From: Candidatus Aerophobetes bacterium Ae_b3a
Lineage (GTDB): Bacteria > Aerophobota > Aerophobia > Aerophobales > AE-B3A
Direction of reading: 5' to 3'
Length of the DNA stretch: 49,486 bases
NCBI GenBank assembly: GCA_005223095.1
Contig: NJBQ01000007.1
Coordinates: 1-49,486, forward strand
Of this stretch, positions 2,691-14,810 are shown in pieces (within the stretch, counting starts at the first letter, position 1; every line of letters starts with the position of its first letter). Below the pieces are notes generated by a model, which ran no database searches, had not been told where the DNA came from, and saw nothing but the letters and a program-made list of their open reading frames with translations. Both the position numbers and the translations under genes were made by a program.

Positions 2691-2787
2691 AACTCCCTCC
2701 GCTATTACAGCTTTCAATAGTACTAGTTTTCTTGATGAACTAAGAAATCATATCGTCTACCGAAGAACGTTCCTTAAAAGCAGTGAA

Positions 2788-2920
2788 TGGTCGTTGGTGA
2801 ATAGTGAATCGCAAACAAGGAAGTAAATGATTGTAGGGTTTGATTAAACCATTCACGATTCACGAAATACGATTCACCAGTTATGGTGACGGAAGAAATT
2901 GTCCTTCGGTACTTTATTCT
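2788..2920. repeat. Heptad-arm inverted element, GTGAAT type (B1), plus a GACGGAAGAAATT hairpin unit
   Basis: The arms are GTGAAT heptads (2780-2812) and their inverted partner (2850-2880). The ~45-nt core is nearly identical, inverted, to that of the element at 11303-11394 (one substitution and one indel seen). Immediately beyond (2886-2920) is a copy of the hairpin unit also seen at 7541, 21236 and 46342. The element separates the two secretin-related genes. Confidence 0.85.
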
Positions 2921-7540: not shown

Positions 7541-7735
7541 CAAGAAACACCGAAGGACAATTTCTTCCGTCGCTGTAACTGGTGAATCGTATTTCGTGAA
7601 TCGTGAATTGTCAATGAAATAGCATAGGAATTTCCTTTTCCCCTCACCTCAATCCTCTCCCCTATGGGGAGAGGGAAGGGAGAGGGGGTAAGTTCTTTCC
7701 TTGTTTGAGATTCACTATTCACTAACGACTATCCA
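7541..7735. repeat. Hairpin unit plus heptad-arm inverted element, GTGAAT type (B2) with REP-like core
   Basis: 7541-7573 is a copy of the AAGAAA...ATTTCTTCCGTC hairpin unit. The left arm (7576-7612) mixes GTGAATC and GTATTTC heptads. The core contains the CCTCTCCCC hairpin (7654-7674). The right arm (7710-7735) includes AACGACTATCCACT, the closest unoccupied match to the IS110 target. The dtd stop codon is inside this arm. Confidence 0.82.
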
Positions 7736-8162
7736 CTATTAAAGTTACCGGACCATCATTATCTATCACTACCCTCATCTTAGCCCCAAACTGTCCATTT
7801 TCAACAATATTTACTCTTTTCCTCATTAACTCTATGAATTTAAGGTAGTATTGCTGTGCCACCTTTATTGGAGCTGCCTCAACGAAATTGGGTCTAAGTC
7901 CCTTTTTGCAATTTCCATAGAGAGTGAATTGAGGAATAACAAGGACTTCTCCCTTCACCTGGAGGAGAGAAAAATTCATTTTTTCCTTTTCATCCGAGAA
8001 TATACGAAGATTAATTATTTTTTCCGCCAGGTATTCTACATTAGCTAATTTATCTCCTTTTCTTACCCCCAAAAATACTACCATTCCTTTATTTATAAAT
8101 CCGACAACCTCTCCCTCTACCAGACATTCAGCTTTCTTAACTCGCTGTATTATCACCCGCAT
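7722..8162 (-). CDS. dtd: D-aminoacyl-tRNA deacylase
   Basis: 146 aa, full family length. It hydrolyses D-amino acids, and glycine mis-attached to tRNA-Ala, from tRNA. The QFTLYG motif is at 78-83 with the key Thr80 kept, although the usual Ser before it is Pro (PQFTL). The cross-subunit Gly-Pro motif is NDGPVTLIVDS at 135-145 (G137-P138). The last residues (SR and the TAG stop) are encoded by a GTGAAT-type heptad, so the native end may have been rewritten by the repeat. It lies 38 bp after hisB. Confidence 0.95.
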   Translation of the reverse strand: MRVIIQRVKKAECLVEGEVVGFINKGMVVFLGVRKGDKLANVEYLAEKIINLRIFSDEKEKMNFSLLQVKGEVLVIPQFTLYGNCKKGLRPNFVEAAPIKVAQQYYLKFIELMRKRVNIVENGQFGAKMRVVIDNDGPVTLIVDSR

Positions 8163-8826: not shown

Positions 8827-10290
8827 CTAGAAATGTTTAAGAATCTTTATGGCAAGGATTTTTGTGGTATTATTGTCTACCTTAAAACGTTCATCAATAC
8901 GATGACCCACTATCCAAACTACTTTGCCTCTATTTAGCAAAAGAGGAATCTTCCCCCTTTTTTCCATGGGAATTTTAAGGTCAATGAAAAAATCCTTAAT
9001 CTTCTTAGACCCTTTCATTCCTAGAGGACAAAACCTATCTCCTTTTTTCCTGTTTCGTAAAAATAAAGGCGGCTTCAGTTTGTCAAAATCAAAAAAAACT
9101 TCCTCTTCTGGAAAACGGCTCACTTCATTCAAGACGACTTTCTCTTTTAAGTCCATAAAAGAAGAGGCAAGAAAAGAGTGTGGCTTTACAGAAATCAACC
9201 TTGTTTCCAATGTCAAACTTAGTTGAGATAGGTCTGTTTTCCCTGGAATAACCAAATATCTGGTAAAAGGTATATTCTTAGATTCTCCTTTTTTGATTAA
9301 AAAGTCTTCATATTGCTTTTGAATCACTAAATTGCCTGGCAGACTTAACTGCTTTGTCCCTCTTTTTCCATCTAAATCCAGGACAGAATCCAAATGGTCT
9401 GAGCCAATTTCCTTGAGGTTACCCTTTATTCTTCGGATACCTTCCCGAAGGACTCTCTTTTGCAAAGCTGGATGCAGACGAAATAGCTTTTCTCTATCCA
9501 AAACTAGCCATCTTTGATTTTTGTTTTCTCTCTCTTTTCTTAATACCTTCCCAAACTCTTTTTCCCCCTTTTTTCTTATGAAATCGGCATCTTCTCTCAA
9601 GTTTTTGCTCATCTGCAAAAGAATCTTGCTTATCTGAAGATTATATTCTTGAGAGAGAAGAGGAAGTAAGTCAAGACGAATCTGATTACGCAAAAAGGAT
9701 GTATCGTTATTAGAAGAATCCACACAGAATTCTAGATTATTTATTTCACAGTACTCCTCTACTTCCTTATGGAAAATCTCAATCAAAGGACGGATTATTC
9801 TTCCTCTTACTGGTGGTATCCCAGAAAGCCCATCTAATCCCGTTCCTTTCATTAATCTCATTAAAACAGTTTCTACCTGGTCAGAGGCAGTATGACCTAC
9901 AGCGATTCTATTAGCGGAAACCTGATTACTCACATGTTCAAAGAAATCATACCTAGCCATCCGGGCGGCTTCTTCCAGCGTAAGCTTTTCTCTCTTAGCC
10001 AAAGTAGCCACATCTAAGGAGTCTGAAATTAAAGGTACCCCAATCTTAGAAGCAAATATTTTTACCCATCTAGCCTCTTCTTCTGCCTCTTTTCCCCTTA
10101 ATTGATGGTTAAGATGAGCAATCCACAATTTCAACTCATACTCATCTCTAAGCTGAAGGAGTAGATGAAGTAAAGTAGTGGAGTCTGGGCCACCTGATAC
10201 GCCCACAACTATTCTTGCTTTGATGGCAAACATCTGGTATTTATCAATAGTTTCTTTGACTTTCTCTAATAAAGAATTACTCTTTTTCAT
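8827..10290 (-). CDS. tilS: tRNA(Ile)-lysidine synthase
   Basis: 487 aa from the ATG at 10290, which has AGGAG eight bases upstream; the GTG at 10299 would overlap that site. It is an N-type ATP pyrophosphatase with the PP-loop SGGPDS at 32-37. It attaches lysine to C34 of tRNA-Ile(CAU), changing the anticodon from AUG to AUA reading. The C-terminal TilS_C domain (about 405-480) carries RNRKKGDRFCPLGMKGSKKIKDFF, typical of long TilS. A good promoter lies 50 bp upstream. Confidence 0.95.
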   Translation of the reverse strand: MKKSNSLLEKVKETIDKYQMFAIKARIVVGVSGGPDSTTLLHLLLQLRDEYELKLWIAHLNHQLRGKEAEEEARWVKIFASKIGVPLISDSLDVATLAKREKLTLEEAARMARYDFFEHVSNQVSANRIAVGHTASDQVETVLMRLMKGTGLDGLSGIPPVRGRIIRPLIEIFHKEVEEYCEINNLEFCVDSSNNDTSFLRNQIRLDLLPLLSQEYNLQISKILLQMSKNLREDADFIRKKGEKEFGKVLRKERENKNQRWLVLDREKLFRLHPALQKRVLREGIRRIKGNLKEIGSDHLDSVLDLDGKRGTKQLSLPGNLVIQKQYEDFLIKKGESKNIPFTRYLVIPGKTDLSQLSLTLETRLISVKPHSFLASSFMDLKEKVVLNEVSRFPEEEVFFDFDKLKPPLFLRNRKKGDRFCPLGMKGSKKIKDFFIDLKIPMEKRGKIPLLLNRGKVVWIVGHRIDERFKVDNNTTKILAIKILKHF

Positions 10291-10347
10291 TAAGAACACT
10301 CCTGGCAGTTTGTCCCTTATTGCCCTCAGTTTCGATAATTATCAATT

Positions 10348-10375
10348 ATTCTATAATAACCAGTAATTATGTCAA
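10348..10375 (-). promoter_or_regulatory. Sigma70-type promoter for tilS
   Basis: On the minus strand TTGACA (10370-10375) is followed after 16 bp by TAGAAT (10348-10353). The expected start near 10341 leaves a leader of about 50 nt before the tilS ATG. The same -35/-10 pair with a 17-bp spacer occurs before ppdK. Confidence 0.72.
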
Positions 10376-10384
10376 TAAAGACAG

Positions 10385-10514
10385 TGTATAGTGTATGGGC
10401 GAAAAATACAAAAGAATGACCTAAAATTCAAAATCAAATTCAAAGAAAGAAAAAGAAGGAAGGAGGAGGTAGTACGTTGTATGGGATAATTTATTCTATC
10501 CGCTATACGCTTAA
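10385..10514. repeat. Heptad-arm element, CGTATAG/AGTGTAT type (E1)
   Basis: The left part has AGTGTAT twice (10384-10397). The right part (10490-10514) holds CGTATAG and CGGATAG inverted. The core is A-rich and unrecognised. The truA stop (TAG at 10503-10505) is read from the AGCGTATAG unit. Confidence 0.65.
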
Positions 10515-11282
10515 TTGCCTATTATTTCTACCATAGCTTACCCGGACTAAGTATAGTCCTTGTGGTGGGACAGTAGGACCGGCAATTCTCCTATCTCTTG
10601 CTTCCAGAATTACCTTCATCTGAGAGCGCGGTATTTTCCCTCGACCAATTTCCACCAGTGTTCCTACTATGTTTCTGGTCATCTTATAAAGAAAACTATT
10701 CGCTTTTATATAAATAATGAGAAACTTCCTTCGGCAGACAAAAGAAATTTTATCTATTCTTCGCCAAGAAGAGGAAGTTGGGCTTCCCTGACTTTCAAAA
10801 GAGGAAAAGTTGTGCTCTCCCAAAAGAAAATCGGAAGCGTATTTCATTTTCTCTATTGTTAGAGGAAAAGGAACTTGCTGAACGAAGCGAGAATAAAATG
10901 GTGGGAGAAAAGAATCATTATAAATTATGTACCTATAGACTCTACTTAAGGCAGACCTCTGAGCGTGGAAATCTAAATCTACCTCTTTTGCTTTCTTAAC
11001 CCTTATATTCTCAGGTAAGCAACTGTTTACAGCAGGCTTGATAGCAGAAAGGGAAACTCTATTCTCTATGGTGAAACTAACTACCTGTCCTGTGGCATGA
11101 ACACCTGCATCTGTTCTTCCCGCTGCAACTGTCTTTATTTCTCGCTTAAAAACACAAGAGAGACTCTTTTCCAGACAACCTTGAACGGTAGGAACTTTTG
11201 GTTGTATTTGCCATCCGCAATAAGAAGTACCGTCATATTCTAAGATTAGTTTTATGTTCCGCACTTTTGTGACATTACTCAA
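10503..11282 (-). CDS. truA: tRNA pseudouridine(38-40) synthase
   Basis: 259 aa. GRTDAGVHA at 55-63 contains the catalytic Asp58; LILEYDGTSYCGWQ (12-25) is the conserved N-terminal segment. It makes pseudouridine at positions 38-40 of the anticodon arm. The start is unsure: a TTG at 11282 or a GTG at 11264, neither with a strong ribosome site. In many bacteria truA lies soon after rplQ. Here the two are on the same strand but are separated by an IS110 insertion, so truA was probably part of the alpha operon. The SV and stop are encoded by a heptad unit. Confidence 0.94.
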   Translation of the reverse strand: MSNVTKVRNIKLILEYDGTSYCGWQIQPKVPTVQGCLEKSLSCVFKREIKTVAAGRTDAGVHATGQVVSFTIENRVSLSAIKPAVNSCLPENIRVKKAKEVDLDFHAQRSALSRVYRYIIYNDSFLPPFYSRFVQQVPFPLTIEKMKYASDFLLGEHNFSSFESQGSPTSSSWRRIDKISFVCRRKFLIIYIKANSFLYKMTRNIVGTLVEIGRGKIPRSQMKVILEARDRRIAGPTVPPQGLYLVRVSYGRNNRQLSV

Positions 11283-11283
11283 T

Positions 11284-11394
11284 ACCCATCACGCACGACA
11301 GAGTTGGTGAATCGTATTTCGTGAATCGTGAATGGTTAATCAAACCCTACAATCATTTATTTCCTTGTTTGCGATTCACTATTCACTAACGACT
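11284..11394. repeat. Heptad-arm inverted element, GTGAAT type (B3), interrupted by the IS110 element
   Basis: It starts with CATCACG/CACGACA units, then a GTGAAT left arm (11303-11332), a core shared with 2788-2880, and a right arm (11371-11394) ending AACGACT. In the intact copies the arm continues ATTCACTG or ATCCACT. Here that continuation, ATTCACTG, is found 2 kb away at 13402-13409, next to the rplQ stop. The element is therefore split by the insertion. Confidence 0.88.
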
Positions 11395-11478
11395 GGTATA
11401 ATATAGGTAGCTATGTCTAGTTTTAAAGAAACAGATTTTCTTCGTTCTTTGAAAGTTCCTTTACCCCAGATTAAGGGT

Positions 11479-11507
11479 TTGCTTTCTTTACTTGAGCAGA
11501 GTATCAT
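11479..11507 (+). promoter_or_regulatory. Possible promoter of the bridge RNA
   Basis: TTGCTT (11479-11484), a 17-bp spacer, then TATCAT (11502-11507). A start near 11514 would fall just before the TTAGGGAAC stem that opens the structured RNA. Confidence 0.5.
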
Positions 11508-11517
11508 TCTCTTATGC

Positions 11518-11712
11518 ACTTAGGGAACGGAGCTGACTTAAACGACTCAGGAGTTTAAAGACTGCCTGTTTGAATAGATTGCCAGTTCCCAAGTGCGAGA
11601 GCACCTATTAAGGAAATTGTGTGTGCACCTTGAGTGCAGCCACTAATTAATAACCAGTATGGTCTTCTCAAAGAGAATGGGCTCGCACAAGTAAAAGCAT
11701 CTGTTCCCTAAA
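11518..11712 (+). ncRNA. Putative IS110 bridge RNA
   Basis: A structured segment of about 195 nt lies between the left IS end and the transposase. TTAGGGAAC (11520-11528) can pair perfectly with GTTCCCTAA (11703-11711) or with GTTCCC (11585-11590). Further hairpins are TTAAAC/GTTTAA (11538-11558), GTGC-GAGA-GCAC (11593-11604) and TGCAC/GTGCA (about 11624-11638). The first loop region holds AACGACT (11541-11547), identical to the left target next to the IS, and TGAATAG (11571-11577), the complement of the right target CTATTCA. The second holds AGGAAAT (11611-11617), identical to the right IS end just before its CT, and ACCAG (11653-11657), the complement of CTGGT across the left border. The order LTG, RTG, LDG, RDG is that of known bridge RNAs (IS621 type). 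Exact RNA ends are inferred. Confidence 0.8.
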
Positions 11713-11740
11713 AGGCAAATAACCTTTCAAGGAGGTAGCT

Positions 11741-13174
11741 ATGCAAGAAAAAAGACACATTGGTCTTGATCTGGGAGTAAAGAGTAAATCTAAAGTCTAC
11801 ATCATAGATCAAGCCGGGAAAAAAGTAAGATCTGAGTTCTCGATTTGGACCACTTCTCAAGGACTAGATTACATGATGAAGCAGGCTCTCAAAGGAACAG
11901 CCAAGGAAACCGGCTCAGATTTAACTATGGAGCCAACTAATATAACCTGGTTTAGAGTAGCCGTTTATCTTAGAAGAAAGTATCCTAAGGTAAAAATTTA
12001 TCGAATCAAGTCCGAAAAGGTGCAAGACTTGAGGAAATTTTACCGAAAGCATACCAAGACCGACTCTTTAGATGCCAAGACTTTAGCTAAGATGCCAATA
12101 GTGGATTCTAATTCCTTACAGGAGGTATACATTCGCCCCAGGGATATACTTGCCCTGAACACCAGATGTAAACAAAGAGCAAGGCTGGTAAAAGAAGCAA
12201 CCAGTAAAAGGAATTCCATATGCGATCAGATAGAGCTTGGTTTTCCTCATCTTGTAGATTGTTTTTCTTCTAAGTTCACTACTCCTTTTATCCGCTTCTG
12301 CGAGAAATACATCAATCCCTTTAAAGTGAGACGCTCAGGGAAAGAAAAGCTCTCAGATATCCTCATTAAACTCGGATTCCGCAAGGATGTCTCTTGCCTA
12401 GCAGAAAATATCTACCAGAGGGCTGAGGAGGCCTGTATTCTCTTGGCTGATGAGGATAATGTGATAGATTATGATGATCTTCAGGATCGCATCCGTTCCG
12501 AGCTTAGAATCTTTAAAACCCTACAAAAAGAGATAGATAAAGTAACTGAGAAAGAACAGGATCTCTATAAAAAGTGCTTTCCCAAGAAAAGGCTTAATAG
12601 TATTCCTGGAATAGCTGATGTTTCTGGTGCAGTTATTGCCTCAACCATTGGGAACCCTCTTAGGTTCTCCTCTGCCAGATCACTAGTAGGTTATTTGGGC
12701 TACTATCCCAAGGAAAACACCTCCGGCCTTTCCTCAAAGAAAGGACTGCGTATGACCAAGGCTGGACCAAATATAGCCAAGGGATCCTTGTATCTGACAG
12801 CTGAAACAGCTCGTCTTATTGACCCCCAAATGGGAAAGATCTACTATAAACAGATGGTAGAGTGTGGGAATCCTCACACCAAAGCAGTTTGCCGAGTAGT
12901 AAGAGCCTTGATTCCCAGAATAATTAGAGTGATGAAGGAGAACCGAGACTACGTAATCTATGATCTAGAGGGAAATCCTATCTCTAGAAAAGAAGGTAGA
13001 AAAATAGTCAAAGAACAGTTCTTTGTCCCTGAGGAGGTACGTCAAAGACTTTCTAATAGGAAGCGAATGCCTCTAAACAAAAAGGGAAGAACCAAACCCC
13101 AATATACAAGAGGCAGCAAAGCTCCTCAGATTAGAGTCGACTCTTCCCCTGGAATCGTCTTCAGCTTGAACTGA
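11741..13174 (+). CDS. IS110-family transposase (recombinase)
   Basis: 477 aa with GGAGG five bases before the ATG. The RuvC-like DEDD_Tnp domain keeps D10 (GLDLG), E64 (TMEPT), D108 and D111 (TDSLDAK). A coiled-coil linker spans about 225-280. The C-terminal Tnp/Transposase_20 domain begins at LNSIPGIADVSG (285-296) and has the likely nucleophile Ser328 in NTSGL, followed by the conserved LRMTKAGPNIAKGSLYL. The last 75 residues are very basic and make it longer than the usual 320-430 aa. It needs the bridge RNA to join donor and target at a CT core. No frameshift or stop is seen, so it is probably active or recently so. It runs against the flanking host genes. Confidence 0.95.
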   Translation: MQEKRHIGLDLGVKSKSKVYIIDQAGKKVRSEFSIWTTSQGLDYMMKQALKGTAKETGSDLTMEPTNITWFRVAVYLRRKYPKVKIYRIKSEKVQDLRKFYRKHTKTDSLDAKTLAKMPIVDSNSLQEVYIRPRDILALNTRCKQRARLVKEATSKRNSICDQIELGFPHLVDCFSSKFTTPFIRFCEKYINPFKVRRSGKEKLSDILIKLGFRKDVSCLAENIYQRAEEACILLADEDNVIDYDDLQDRIRSELRIFKTLQKEIDKVTEKEQDLYKKCFPKKRLNSIPGIADVSGAVIASTIGNPLRFSSARSLVGYLGYYPKENTSGLSSKKGLRMTKAGPNIAKGSLYLTAETARLIDPQMGKIYYKQMVECGNPHTKAVCRVVRALIPRIIRVMKENRDYVIYDLEGNPISRKEGRKIVKEQFFVPEEVRQRLSNRKRMPLNKKGRTKPQYTRGSKAPQIRVDSSPGIVFSLN

Positions 13175-13256
13175 ATATACCTTAATTAATCTGAGGAATT
13201 TGTCAAACATGGTCTTTCTAATGCCTACAAATAAAGGGATATAGCAGATTTTGTGG

Positions 13257-13280
13257 AAAAGTATAATCTAGTATACTTTT
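13257..13280. terminator. Bidirectional terminator-like hairpin at the right end of the IS
   Basis: AAAAGTATA (13257-13265) and TATACTTTT (13272-13280) form a perfect 9-bp stem with a 6-nt loop. CTTTT follows on the plus strand and TTTTCC on the minus strand. It lies between the convergent transposase and rplQ genes, inside the IS. Confidence 0.55.
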
Positions 13281-13401
13281 CTTTTAAGATCTAAAGTTTT
13301 TTGCTCTTTGCTCACTAATTTCACGAAGATCTATGCTTCATAAGCTCTATGCCAATATTTTAATCTGGGAGCAAGGGGACTTGACATATCTTAGGAAATC
13401 T

Positions 13402-13409
13402 ATTCACTG
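13402..13409. repeat. Right remnant of heptad element B3 beyond the IS
   Basis: ATTCACTG directly follows the right CT core of the IS and precedes the rplQ stop by 2 bp. Together with 11284-11394 it rebuilds a GTGAAT-type arm. Confidence 0.75.
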
Positions 13410-13411
13410 AT

Positions 13412-13762
13412 TTATACCAGCTTTACCTTGCACATTAAGGCATCATCTCCCTGTCGATACTTGAACTTTATTATTTTCGTATATCCTCCCGAGCGATTTT
13501 TATATCTGGGAGCGATTACCTCAAAAAGCTTTTTTGTTACTTTTTTATCTCGAACAATTCTGAATGCATTTCGCCTGTGATGAACAGAATCAACTTTAGC
13601 CAAAGTGATTATTTTTTCTGCCCATCTAGCCATCTCTTTAGCCTTCGCCTCTGTGGTAGTAATTTCTTCATAAAAAAGAAGTGATTTGATTAAATTTATT
13701 AATAACGCTTCTCTTTGGTCTTTATCCCGCCCTAATTTTCTTCCTTTTTTTCTATGTCTCAT
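13412..13762 (-). CDS. rplQ: 50S ribosomal protein L17
   Basis: 116 aa, standard length. It begins MRHRKKGRKLGRDKDQREALL, the L17 signature with RxxRxxAL, and ends in the conserved GDDALMCKVKL. It binds 23S rRNA near the exit tunnel. It is the last gene of the alpha operon and overlaps the end of rpoA by 11 bp. Only 2 bp separate its TAA from a heptad remnant that marks the IS110 target site. Confidence 0.97.
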   Translation of the reverse strand: MRHRKKGRKLGRDKDQREALLINLIKSLLFYEEITTTEAKAKEMARWAEKIITLAKVDSVHHRRNAFRIVRDKKVTKKLFEVIAPRYKNRSGGYTKIIKFKYRQGDDALMCKVKLV

Positions 13763-14699
13763 TGTCTTTTTCTTTAGCTAAGGTTAGATTATATTTAGCC
13801 AGCTGCGTTTCCGCCTTTTCCAGTGACTTTTTCCCAAACTTTTGTATTTTGAGAAGTTCTTTGCCGCTTACATTAGTTAAATCCCTCATCTTCTTAATCC
13901 CCAAATCTTTTAAAGCACGAAGGGGGGTGGCAGAAAATCCTATTTTTTCCACTTCTTCTTCCAAAAAATCTTCTATTTTTTCCATCTTCGCTTCTATTCC
14001 CTTTTTGCCTAGAGTAGCAAAAGGAGCGAAACATTCAATCAAAATCTTAGCAGACTTTCGTATTGCTTCATCAGGCCTAACTGTGTCATCAGTAAAAACC
14101 TCGAGAGCAAGAGAATCAAAACTGGTTTTTCTTCCAATCCTGGCTGACCTTACTTCATATTTTACTTTCTTAATGGGCGTAAAGACAGAGTCCATCGGAA
14201 TAGTTCCCACTGGTTGATCGGCCTTTTTATTTTCTTCTGCTTCCACATAGCCCATGCCTTTAGCTAAAGTAATCTCCATTAAAAGATGTGTTTTCTTGTT
14301 ATCCAGGGTAGCTATGGGTATATCCGGATTAACGATTTCTGCCTCGCTGTCAGGTTTGATATGAGAAGCTTTCACTTCTAAAGGACCCCGAACGTCTAAG
14401 AAGATTTTTTTTTCTTTTTCACCAGTAAACAATCTCGCTCTAATCTTTTTAAGGTTCTGTATAATTTGCAGCACATCCTCTTTAACCCCTTTAATGGAGC
14501 AAAACTCGTGGAACACACCTTCAATCTTTACAGAAATCACAGCTACACCAGGAATAGAGGAAAGCAAAATTCGTCGAAGAGAATTACCCAGAGTTATACC
14601 ATATCCTCTTTCCAAAGGCTCGATAACAAACTTACCATAAGTATCAGAAAAAGTATCTTTTTCAATTATTATCTCTTTTGGTTTTACTAATTCCCTCAC
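13752..14699 (-). CDS. rpoA: DNA-directed RNA polymerase alpha subunit
   Basis: I choose the GTG at 14699 (315 aa, the usual length), with AGGAG six bases upstream. The open frame runs back to 14795 only because it passes through a heptad repeat and would add an unrelated basic tail. The alpha-NTD has YGKFVIEPLERGYGITLGNSLRRILLSSIPG (about 22-52), which holds the dimer and core-assembly motif. The alpha-CTD helix-hairpin-helix (about 255-305) includes LGIKKMRDLTNVSGKELL and contacts UP-element DNA and activators. The repeat sits between its SD and rpsD. Confidence 0.95.
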   Translation of the reverse strand: MRELVKPKEIIIEKDTFSDTYGKFVIEPLERGYGITLGNSLRRILLSSIPGVAVISVKIEGVFHEFCSIKGVKEDVLQIIQNLKKIRARLFTGEKEKKIFLDVRGPLEVKASHIKPDSEAEIVNPDIPIATLDNKKTHLLMEITLAKGMGYVEAEENKKADQPVGTIPMDSVFTPIKKVKYEVRSARIGRKTSFDSLALEVFTDDTVRPDEAIRKSAKILIECFAPFATLGKKGIEAKMEKIEDFLEEEVEKIGFSATPLRALKDLGIKKMRDLTNVSGKELLKIQKFGKKSLEKAETQLAKYNLTLAKEKDNET

Positions 14700-14721
14700 T
14701 ACCTTCTCCTCTATTGTTTTC

Positions 14722-14810
14722 GTTGCTAGTATCTCATGCCCTCTCTTCTTGAGGAGAGGATACTTTTCTCTTTTTCTTTTTCGAGCGACCAGCAACGAGC
14801 AACGAATTTT
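14722..14810. repeat. Heptad-arm inverted element, GTTGCT type (D1, short)
   Basis: The left arm is CGTTGCT, AGTATCT (14722-14736) and the right arm (14783-14809) the inverted set CGTTGCT, CGTTGCT, GGTCGCT. A CCTCTC/GAGAGG hairpin lies in the core. It is shorter than the two copies at 19547 and 20657. It occupies the rpsD-rpoA spacer. Confidence 0.75.

What the first reader, a model, noticed from the sequence alone, without database searches (positions are those of the whole stretch)
11395..13401. IS110 element with a bridge RNA whose guides match its own heptad-repeat target and its own ends
The IS ends were first set without using the RNA, by comparing the broken heptad element with intact copies (left AACGACT, right CTATTCACTG, core CT). 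The 5' non-coding RNA then shows AACGACT (11541-11547), identical to the left target, and TGAATAG (11571-11577), complement of the right target. It also shows AGGAAAT (11611-11617), identical to the donor end at 13393-13399, and ACCAG (11653-11657), complement of the left border CTGGT. The four occur in the order LTG, RTG, LDG, RDG known for IS621-type bridge RNAs. This points to an RNA-guided recombinase aimed at a host repeat family. The donor-guide match is weaker (5 nt on the right; the core after AGGAAAT is not CT).
Basis: partly seen in the sequence, partly recalled or inferred. Interest (0 to 1): 0.93.

Follow-up and report, generated by a model that had tools for sequence, protein, structure and literature searches.

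The report
RNA-guided jumping gene in host repeat
A mobile DNA element in a bacterium related to Candidatus Aerophobetes carries an RNA gene whose guide segments match both its own ends and the host repeat it sits in, as expected of the known IS110 'bridge RNA' elements; the reading is sound, but it is one more member of a known kind.

Summary
Window 11395-13401 is a complete IS110-group insertion sequence: 477-aa recombinase (11741-13174), 346-nt left end, 227-nt right end. Its ends were re-derived without the RNA: uninterrupted copies of a ~95-bp host repeat run through the site, leaving only a CT core at each border. The leader folds into two hairpins with the four guides on opposite sides of two internal loops. 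LTG matches 7 of 9 target letters, RTG 7 of 7, LDG 7 of 7 plus a wobble, RDG 5 nt plus a discontiguous AU. The joint score was not reached in 3000 draws of random CT sites. New here: circularisation joins TTGACA and TATAAT at 17 bp, a consensus promoter. A relative at 29% protein identity (G034), with another target, shows the same arrangement with its own guides (0 of 3000); swapped guides score at background. Against: four plasmid relatives under an assumed CA core gave no signal, a left-end remnant in G009 does not fit the guide, and the genome holds no second copy. Verdict: a new IS110 bridge-RNA element aimed at a lineage-specific repeat, analogous to IS621 and REP sequences. New member of a known kind.

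The parts
11395..13401 (+). complete IS110-group insertion sequence (one CT core counted, at the right end)
   Evidence: empty-site comparison with intact repeat copies; single copy in the genome
11393..11394 (+). left core dinucleotide CT
   Evidence: sequence, empty sites
13400..13401 (+). right core dinucleotide CT
   Evidence: sequence, empty sites
11306..11394 (+). left part of the interrupted host repeat, continued from 13402 (ATTCACTG)
11397..11402 (+). TATAAT, -10 box that meets the -35 box only in the circular form (17-bp spacer)
13381..13386 (+). TTGACA, -35 box of the junction promoter
   Evidence: TTGACA also in G011, TTGCAT in G004
11516..11596 (+). target-binding hairpin of the bridge RNA
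   Evidence: folds
11539..11547 (+). left target guide; 11541-11547 identical to left target plus core
11571..11577 (+). right target guide, complement of core plus right target (7 of 7)
11594..11690 (+). donor-binding hairpin of the bridge RNA (outer limits approximate; predicted pairing differs between folds)
   Evidence: folds
11611..11618 (+). left donor guide, 7 of 7 to the right IS end; the eighth letter U faces G of the core
11650..11657 (+). right donor guide: AU, one looped-out A, then ACCAG
   Evidence: pairing scheme by analogy with PMC11208158 (passages)
11741..13174 (+). IS110 recombinase, 477 aa
   Evidence: PF01548 2.7e-18, PF02371 6.4e-15; PDB relatives ISCro4 and IS621

Best explanation
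An IS110-group element that moves as a circle by an RNA-guided recombinase. On excision the right and left ends join at CT and assemble a TTGACA-17-TATAAT promoter, which transcribes the left end as a bridge RNA. One internal loop of that RNA pairs with both strands of the circle junction (donor), the other with both strands of the chromosomal site AACGA-CT-ATTCA (target). The recombinase exchanges strands at the two CT cores, so insertion leaves no duplication beyond the core. The target lies near one end of a ~95-bp repeat present in tens of copies in this genome, some of which still carry the intact site. Shown by sequence: borders, core, promoter letters, guide matches, predicted loop placement, protein domains. 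Inferred from IS621: transcription, base pairing in the complex, catalysis, circle formation.
For: IS110 domains and PDB relatives ISCro4 and IS621. Borders from empty sites. Joint guide score 26 of 30, null 0 of 3000. Guides in internal loops, cost 5.5 against median 21.0 kcal/mol; leader folds better than all 200 and all 100 shuffles, z -3.15 and -3.42. Junction promoter 12 of 12 with spacer 17, reached by 0 of 20000 random CT-CT junctions and 1 of 20000 shuffles. Independent relative L005/G034 (29% aa identity): other target, other guides, joint 27 of 30, null 0 of 3000 (best 26); swapped guides 23 and 21, within background; its junction gives TTGAAA-17-TATACT, 10 of 12, which 68 of 20000 random window junctions reach. 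Right end and CT kept in G004 and G011; their right flanks match the extended 9-letter RTG at 6 and 8 of 9, the window's own flank at 7 of 9.
Against: No transcript data. One copy in the genome, so guide and target cannot be tested on several insertions of this IS. LTG matches 7 of 9. G009 left-end remnant: its flank matches LTG at 4 of 9, core included. Four plasmid relatives (L053, L054, L058, L060; plasmid hits are 28-37% identical) show target and donor scores within background under an assumed CA core, and the CT-core scan resolved none of nine plasmid relatives. The LDG does not match the core. No Rfam family matches the leader.
Confidence: 0.93

Rival explanations
1. An IS110 element whose leader is a bridge RNA, but the match of the target guides to the repeat is partly coincidental or decayed; the element landed there by chance or by homology.
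For: Target guides alone are reached by 26 of 4000 random CT pairs in a free search; LTG mismatches at positions 1-2; single insertion.
Against: At fixed guide positions 6 of 200000 random pairs match as well; the joint score is never reached in 3000 draws; the guides lie opposite each other in one internal loop.
Confidence: 0.05
2. The leader is only a structured 5' untranslated region regulating the transposase, and the element moves by protein-only recognition.
For: The leader directly precedes the gene and an AGGAGG-like stretch; no transcript evidence for a separate RNA.
Against: Four guide matches in fixed order in two elements of distant hosts with different targets; known mechanism of the family (PMC11208160, PMC11208158, passages).
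Confidence: 0.02

Closest known systems
IS621 (IS110 group) and its bridge RNA
   Same: DEDD-type plus serine recombinase, CT core, RNA in the left end, order LTG-RTG-LDG-RDG, discontiguous RDG, promoter rebuilt at the RE-LE junction, targets a host interspersed repeat (REP)
   Different: recombinase 477 aa against a 328-residue chain and remote in sequence; ~105 nt before the target hairpin if transcription starts just after the -10 box, against 33 nt in IS621; LDG letters opposite the core are UG; the target repeat shows no evident likeness to the REP queries printed in PMC11208160 (by eye)
IS110 subgroup with long transposases (395-455 aa; PMC11187229 passages)
   Same: long recombinase, upstream non-coding region
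   Different: this protein is slightly longer; ISfinder was not available to search for a named close member
   Same: same anatomy, right end AGGwAATCT, LDG AGGwAATTG, junction -35/-10 layout with spacer 17
   Different: 29% protein identity, other target and target guides, longer leader
REP-targeting IS elements (ISPpu9, ISPpu10, ISPa11 and others; abstract of PMC1525189)
   Same: site-specific insertion into an interspersed host repeat
   Different: other hosts and repeat families

Membership tests
IS110 family insertion sequence | DEDD_Tnp_IS110 plus Transposase_20 domains | tested here: met
   PF01548 and PF02371 above cut-offs; NCBIfam NF033542 E 1.2e-34 but 120 bits, below its cut-off of 140
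IS110 family insertion sequence | conserved serine in the SG motif of the C-terminal domain | tested here: met
   S328-G329 invariant in four sequences and aligned with the SG of the IS621 and ISCro4 chains; that this is S241 of IS621 was not checked by numbering
IS110 family insertion sequence | acidic residues of the RuvC-like domain | tested here: inconclusive
   profile match to PF01548; against ISCro4 and IS621 the N-terminal stretch aligns only weakly; residues not checked one by one
IS110 group | left end longer than right end, RNA in the left end | tested here: met
   346 and 227 nt; guides in the left end
IS110 group | no long (7-17 bp) inverted repeats near the ends | tested here: met
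   longest exact inverted match between the first and last 60 nt is 6; gapped or mismatched repeats not sought
IS110 family insertion sequence | insertion without duplication beyond the core | tested here: met
   empty sites
bridge RNA of IS621 type | two internal loops carrying LTG, RTG, LDG, RDG in this order | tested here: met
bridge RNA of IS621 type | core dinucleotide included in each guide pairing | tested here: inconclusive
   core letters match in LTG, RTG and RDG, not in LDG, which reads UG
bridge RNA of IS621 type | guides change together with targets | tested here: inconclusive
   holds for the window and L005 with swap control; no signal in four plasmid relatives; close relatives lack the RNA
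bridge RNA of IS621 type | transcribed from a promoter rebuilt at the circle junction | not testable with these tools
   promoter letters present; transcription needs RNA data
IS1111 group | RNA in the right end and sub-terminal inverted repeats of 7-17 bp | tested here: not met
   guides found in the left end (the right end was not scanned for guides); longest exact inverted match 6

The most novel reading that the evidence does not exclude
The Aerophobetes-type element and the G034 element define a long-recombinase IS110 clade whose donor loop does not read the core on its left side (UG in both where CU is expected) and whose RNA starts with a long extra leader: a recognisable variant of the bridge-RNA scheme, here specialised on a lineage-specific interspersed repeat.
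Probability: 0.3. Interest if true: 0.45.

Novelty: new member of a known kind. Interest (0 to 1): 0.38.

Why it matters
It brings a well-documented candidate bridge-RNA recombinase from a little-studied bacterial lineage, remote in sequence from those with solved structures, with target, donor, core and promoter all readable from one locus. It adds another kind of host interspersed repeat, besides REP, as a landing site for RNA-guided insertion, and gives concrete guide and target pairs for testing recombinase diversity.

Tried and rejected
Searches for more intact copies: DNA search of the own genome gave one copy. Protein search of 193 relatives (44 with some IS110 match at E 1e-3) and of the 17 genomes held for the order and the phylum gave two close relatives, G004 and G011, both cut at contig ends. 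A DNA search of seven of these genomes found no left end with RNA, only the G009 remnant. Genome contigs: nothing with the single protein, the same two contigs with the alignment. Viral contigs: none of 600 stretches; phages: none at E 1e-20; plasmids: 18 records at E 1e-30, of which I fetched nine. 2 genomes of the class of G034 (E 1e-30), 386 relatives of G034 (E 1e-40) and 5 of the phylum of G110 (E 1e-35) gave no new member; G110's copy has a stop and no left end that I could read.

Rfam gave no match in the leader. No covariance model was built, because only two intact RNAs of this clade were in hand. The AlphaFold model was poor (mean pLDDT 58.9) and was not used or searched. Plasmid relatives: the CT scan was unresolved in nine of nine; the CA-core test of the four with shared borders was at background. 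The scan of the second IS110 of the own genome (L032) was unresolved. A paper search on heptamer repeats gave nothing.

Full report
What is there. The window lies in a 2.37-Mb draft genome (G000); the two relatives carrying a close copy of this IS, G004 (same family) and G011 (same order), match contigs of Candidatus Aerophobetes MAGs. Between the genes for tRNA pseudouridine synthase (10503-11282, minus) and ribosomal protein L17 (13412-13762, minus) lies one plus-strand gene, 11741-13174, 477 aa, with the two domains of IS110 recombinases. Its relatives of solved structure are ISCro4, IS621 and, weakly, 9mty. The IS is single-copy in the genome; a second, distant IS110 gene (22% identity) lies on contig C68.

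Ends without the RNA. The left flank, 11306-11394, is most of a ~95-bp interspersed repeat. A search with an intact copy gave 40 matches in G000 (40 of 50 candidates scored), 15 in the genus mate G001, two each in G007 and G005, and none in the other 13 of 17 genomes. I read 35 G000 loci, which cover 36 of the other 39 G000 matches, and 13 loci for 13 of the 15 in G001. Two intact copies, L045 and L087, agree with the joined flanks over 34 letters through the insertion point, so the element is flanked by CT on both sides with no other duplication. Sites as good for the guides as the occupied one (14 of 16) were the best hit in 2 of 35 G000 loci and 4 of 13 G001 loci; the scan covered whole loci, and one of these, L077, was not confirmed to lie inside a repeat. 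In 8 of the 35 G000 loci the core reads CC instead, and many others lack the unit. The 12-letter site AACGACTATTCA occurs three times elsewhere in the genome (the reversed control pattern once), each in heptad-type repeat sequence as read. So free targets exist.

The RNA. The leader folds better than shuffles (z -3.15 for 11500-11700; -3.42 for 11395-11740). The first hairpin has an outer stem 11516-11528/11585-11596 and an inner stem-loop 11548-11569; AACGACT lies on its 5' inner side and TGAATAG on its 3' inner side. The second carries AGGAAAT and AUAACCAG on the two sides of an inner stem-loop. The free fold forms short helices inside the loops (mean unpaired probability 0.62 for LTG, 0.44 for RTG, 0.35 for LDG as measured one base off, 0.62 for RDG, against 0.34 overall). 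Opening all four guides costs 5.5 kcal/mol, against a median of 21.0 for the same pattern slid by -28 to +34 nt; ranks 1 and 2 of 63 are shifts of -2 and -1.

Pairing scheme. [quoted passage not shown] Here LTG covers positions 3-9 of the target (7 of 9), RTG positions 8-14 (7 of 7), LDG donor positions 1-7 with a U opposite the G of the core, and RDG positions 8-12 by ACCAG plus AU after one looped-out A (this last pairing is my reading of the letters and was not part of the score). Joint score 26 of 30; 0 of 3000 draws of random window CT sites reach it, the best reaching 25.

Promoter. Joining right end, CT and left end gives TTGACA (13381-13386), 17 bp, TATAAT (11397-11402). None of 20000 random CT-CT junctions of the window and 1 of 20000 shuffles reach 12 of 12. 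A promoter rebuilt at the circle junction is described for IS621. The right end is conserved in G004 and G011, with TTGCAT and TTGACA at the -35 place, and the G009 left-end remnant keeps TATAAT.

Independent relative. The L005 element lies in G034, which is not among the 17 genomes held for the window's phylum; protein identity 29%. I first saw the arrangement by eye; a scan of all 45 x 31 CT pairs then ranked it first, 27 against 25: left target TTTCAACCT, right target CTCCGTCAAG, with ATTCAACCT (8 of 9) and CTTGACGGAG (10 of 10, read) in its leader, LDG AGGTAAT and RDG ACAAG. Joint score 27 of 30; 0 of 3000 draws reach it, the best 26; these draws come from the window, not from G034. Swapping flanks between the two elements gives 23 and 21, inside the null. 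Opening its guides costs 9.9 kcal/mol; no slid control was run for it. Its junction gives TTGAAA-17-TATACT, 10 of 12, reached by 68 of 20000 random window junctions. Both LDGs continue with UG where the core is CT.

Results against. The G009 left-end remnant has a flank that matches LTG at only 4 of 9. Four plasmid relatives (two Burkholderia, one Paraburkholderia, one Mycetohabitans), tested under an assumed CA core, gave target and donor scores within background (target null reached by 666 to 1715 of 2000, donor by 610 to 1857 of 2000), so either core or geometry differs there or the scheme fails. G004 and G011 end before the RNA; their right flanks match the window's extended RTG at 6 and 8 of 9, levels that 410 and 10 of 4616 window CT sites reach; this is suggestive only.

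Standing. Bridge RNAs were predicted in 85.7% of IS110-group elements (PMC11208160 passage), and insertion into host interspersed repeats is known for IS621 and other ISs (passages and abstract). Searches for Aerophobetes with 'insertion sequence' (0 papers) and with 'transposase' (3 papers, listing only) showed no paper on this element by title. It is a new, well-supported member of a known kind.

Noticed in passing
window 2783-2878, 7581-7736, 11306-11394: Copies of a ~95-bp interspersed repeat built of heptad-like units with inverted ends; 40 scored matches in this genome, 15 in the genus mate, two weak ones each in G007 and G005, none in the other 13 genomes of the phylum. Its own mode of spread is unknown.
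   Followed up: partly
L032 (G000:C68:13418-14584): A second, distant IS110 gene in the same genome whose leader also holds CTGGTATAAT and an ACCAG; borders and guides unresolved.
   Followed up: partly
L043 around 2411-2487 (G009:C53:3910-3986): A 77-bp left-end remnant of the same IS (88% identity) without the rest, possibly a deletion derivative.
   Followed up: partly
L053, L054, L058, L060: Related IS110 elements on plasmids seem to lie in genes of IS21-type helper ATPases (inferred from neighbours and letters, not tested) and also show a -35-like box near the right end; guide test at background.
   Followed up: partly
window 8827-14795: The IS sits in the gap between genes for tRNA pseudouridine synthase and ribosomal protein L17 in a minus-strand row with RNA polymerase alpha and TilS, in opposite orientation.
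   Followed up: no
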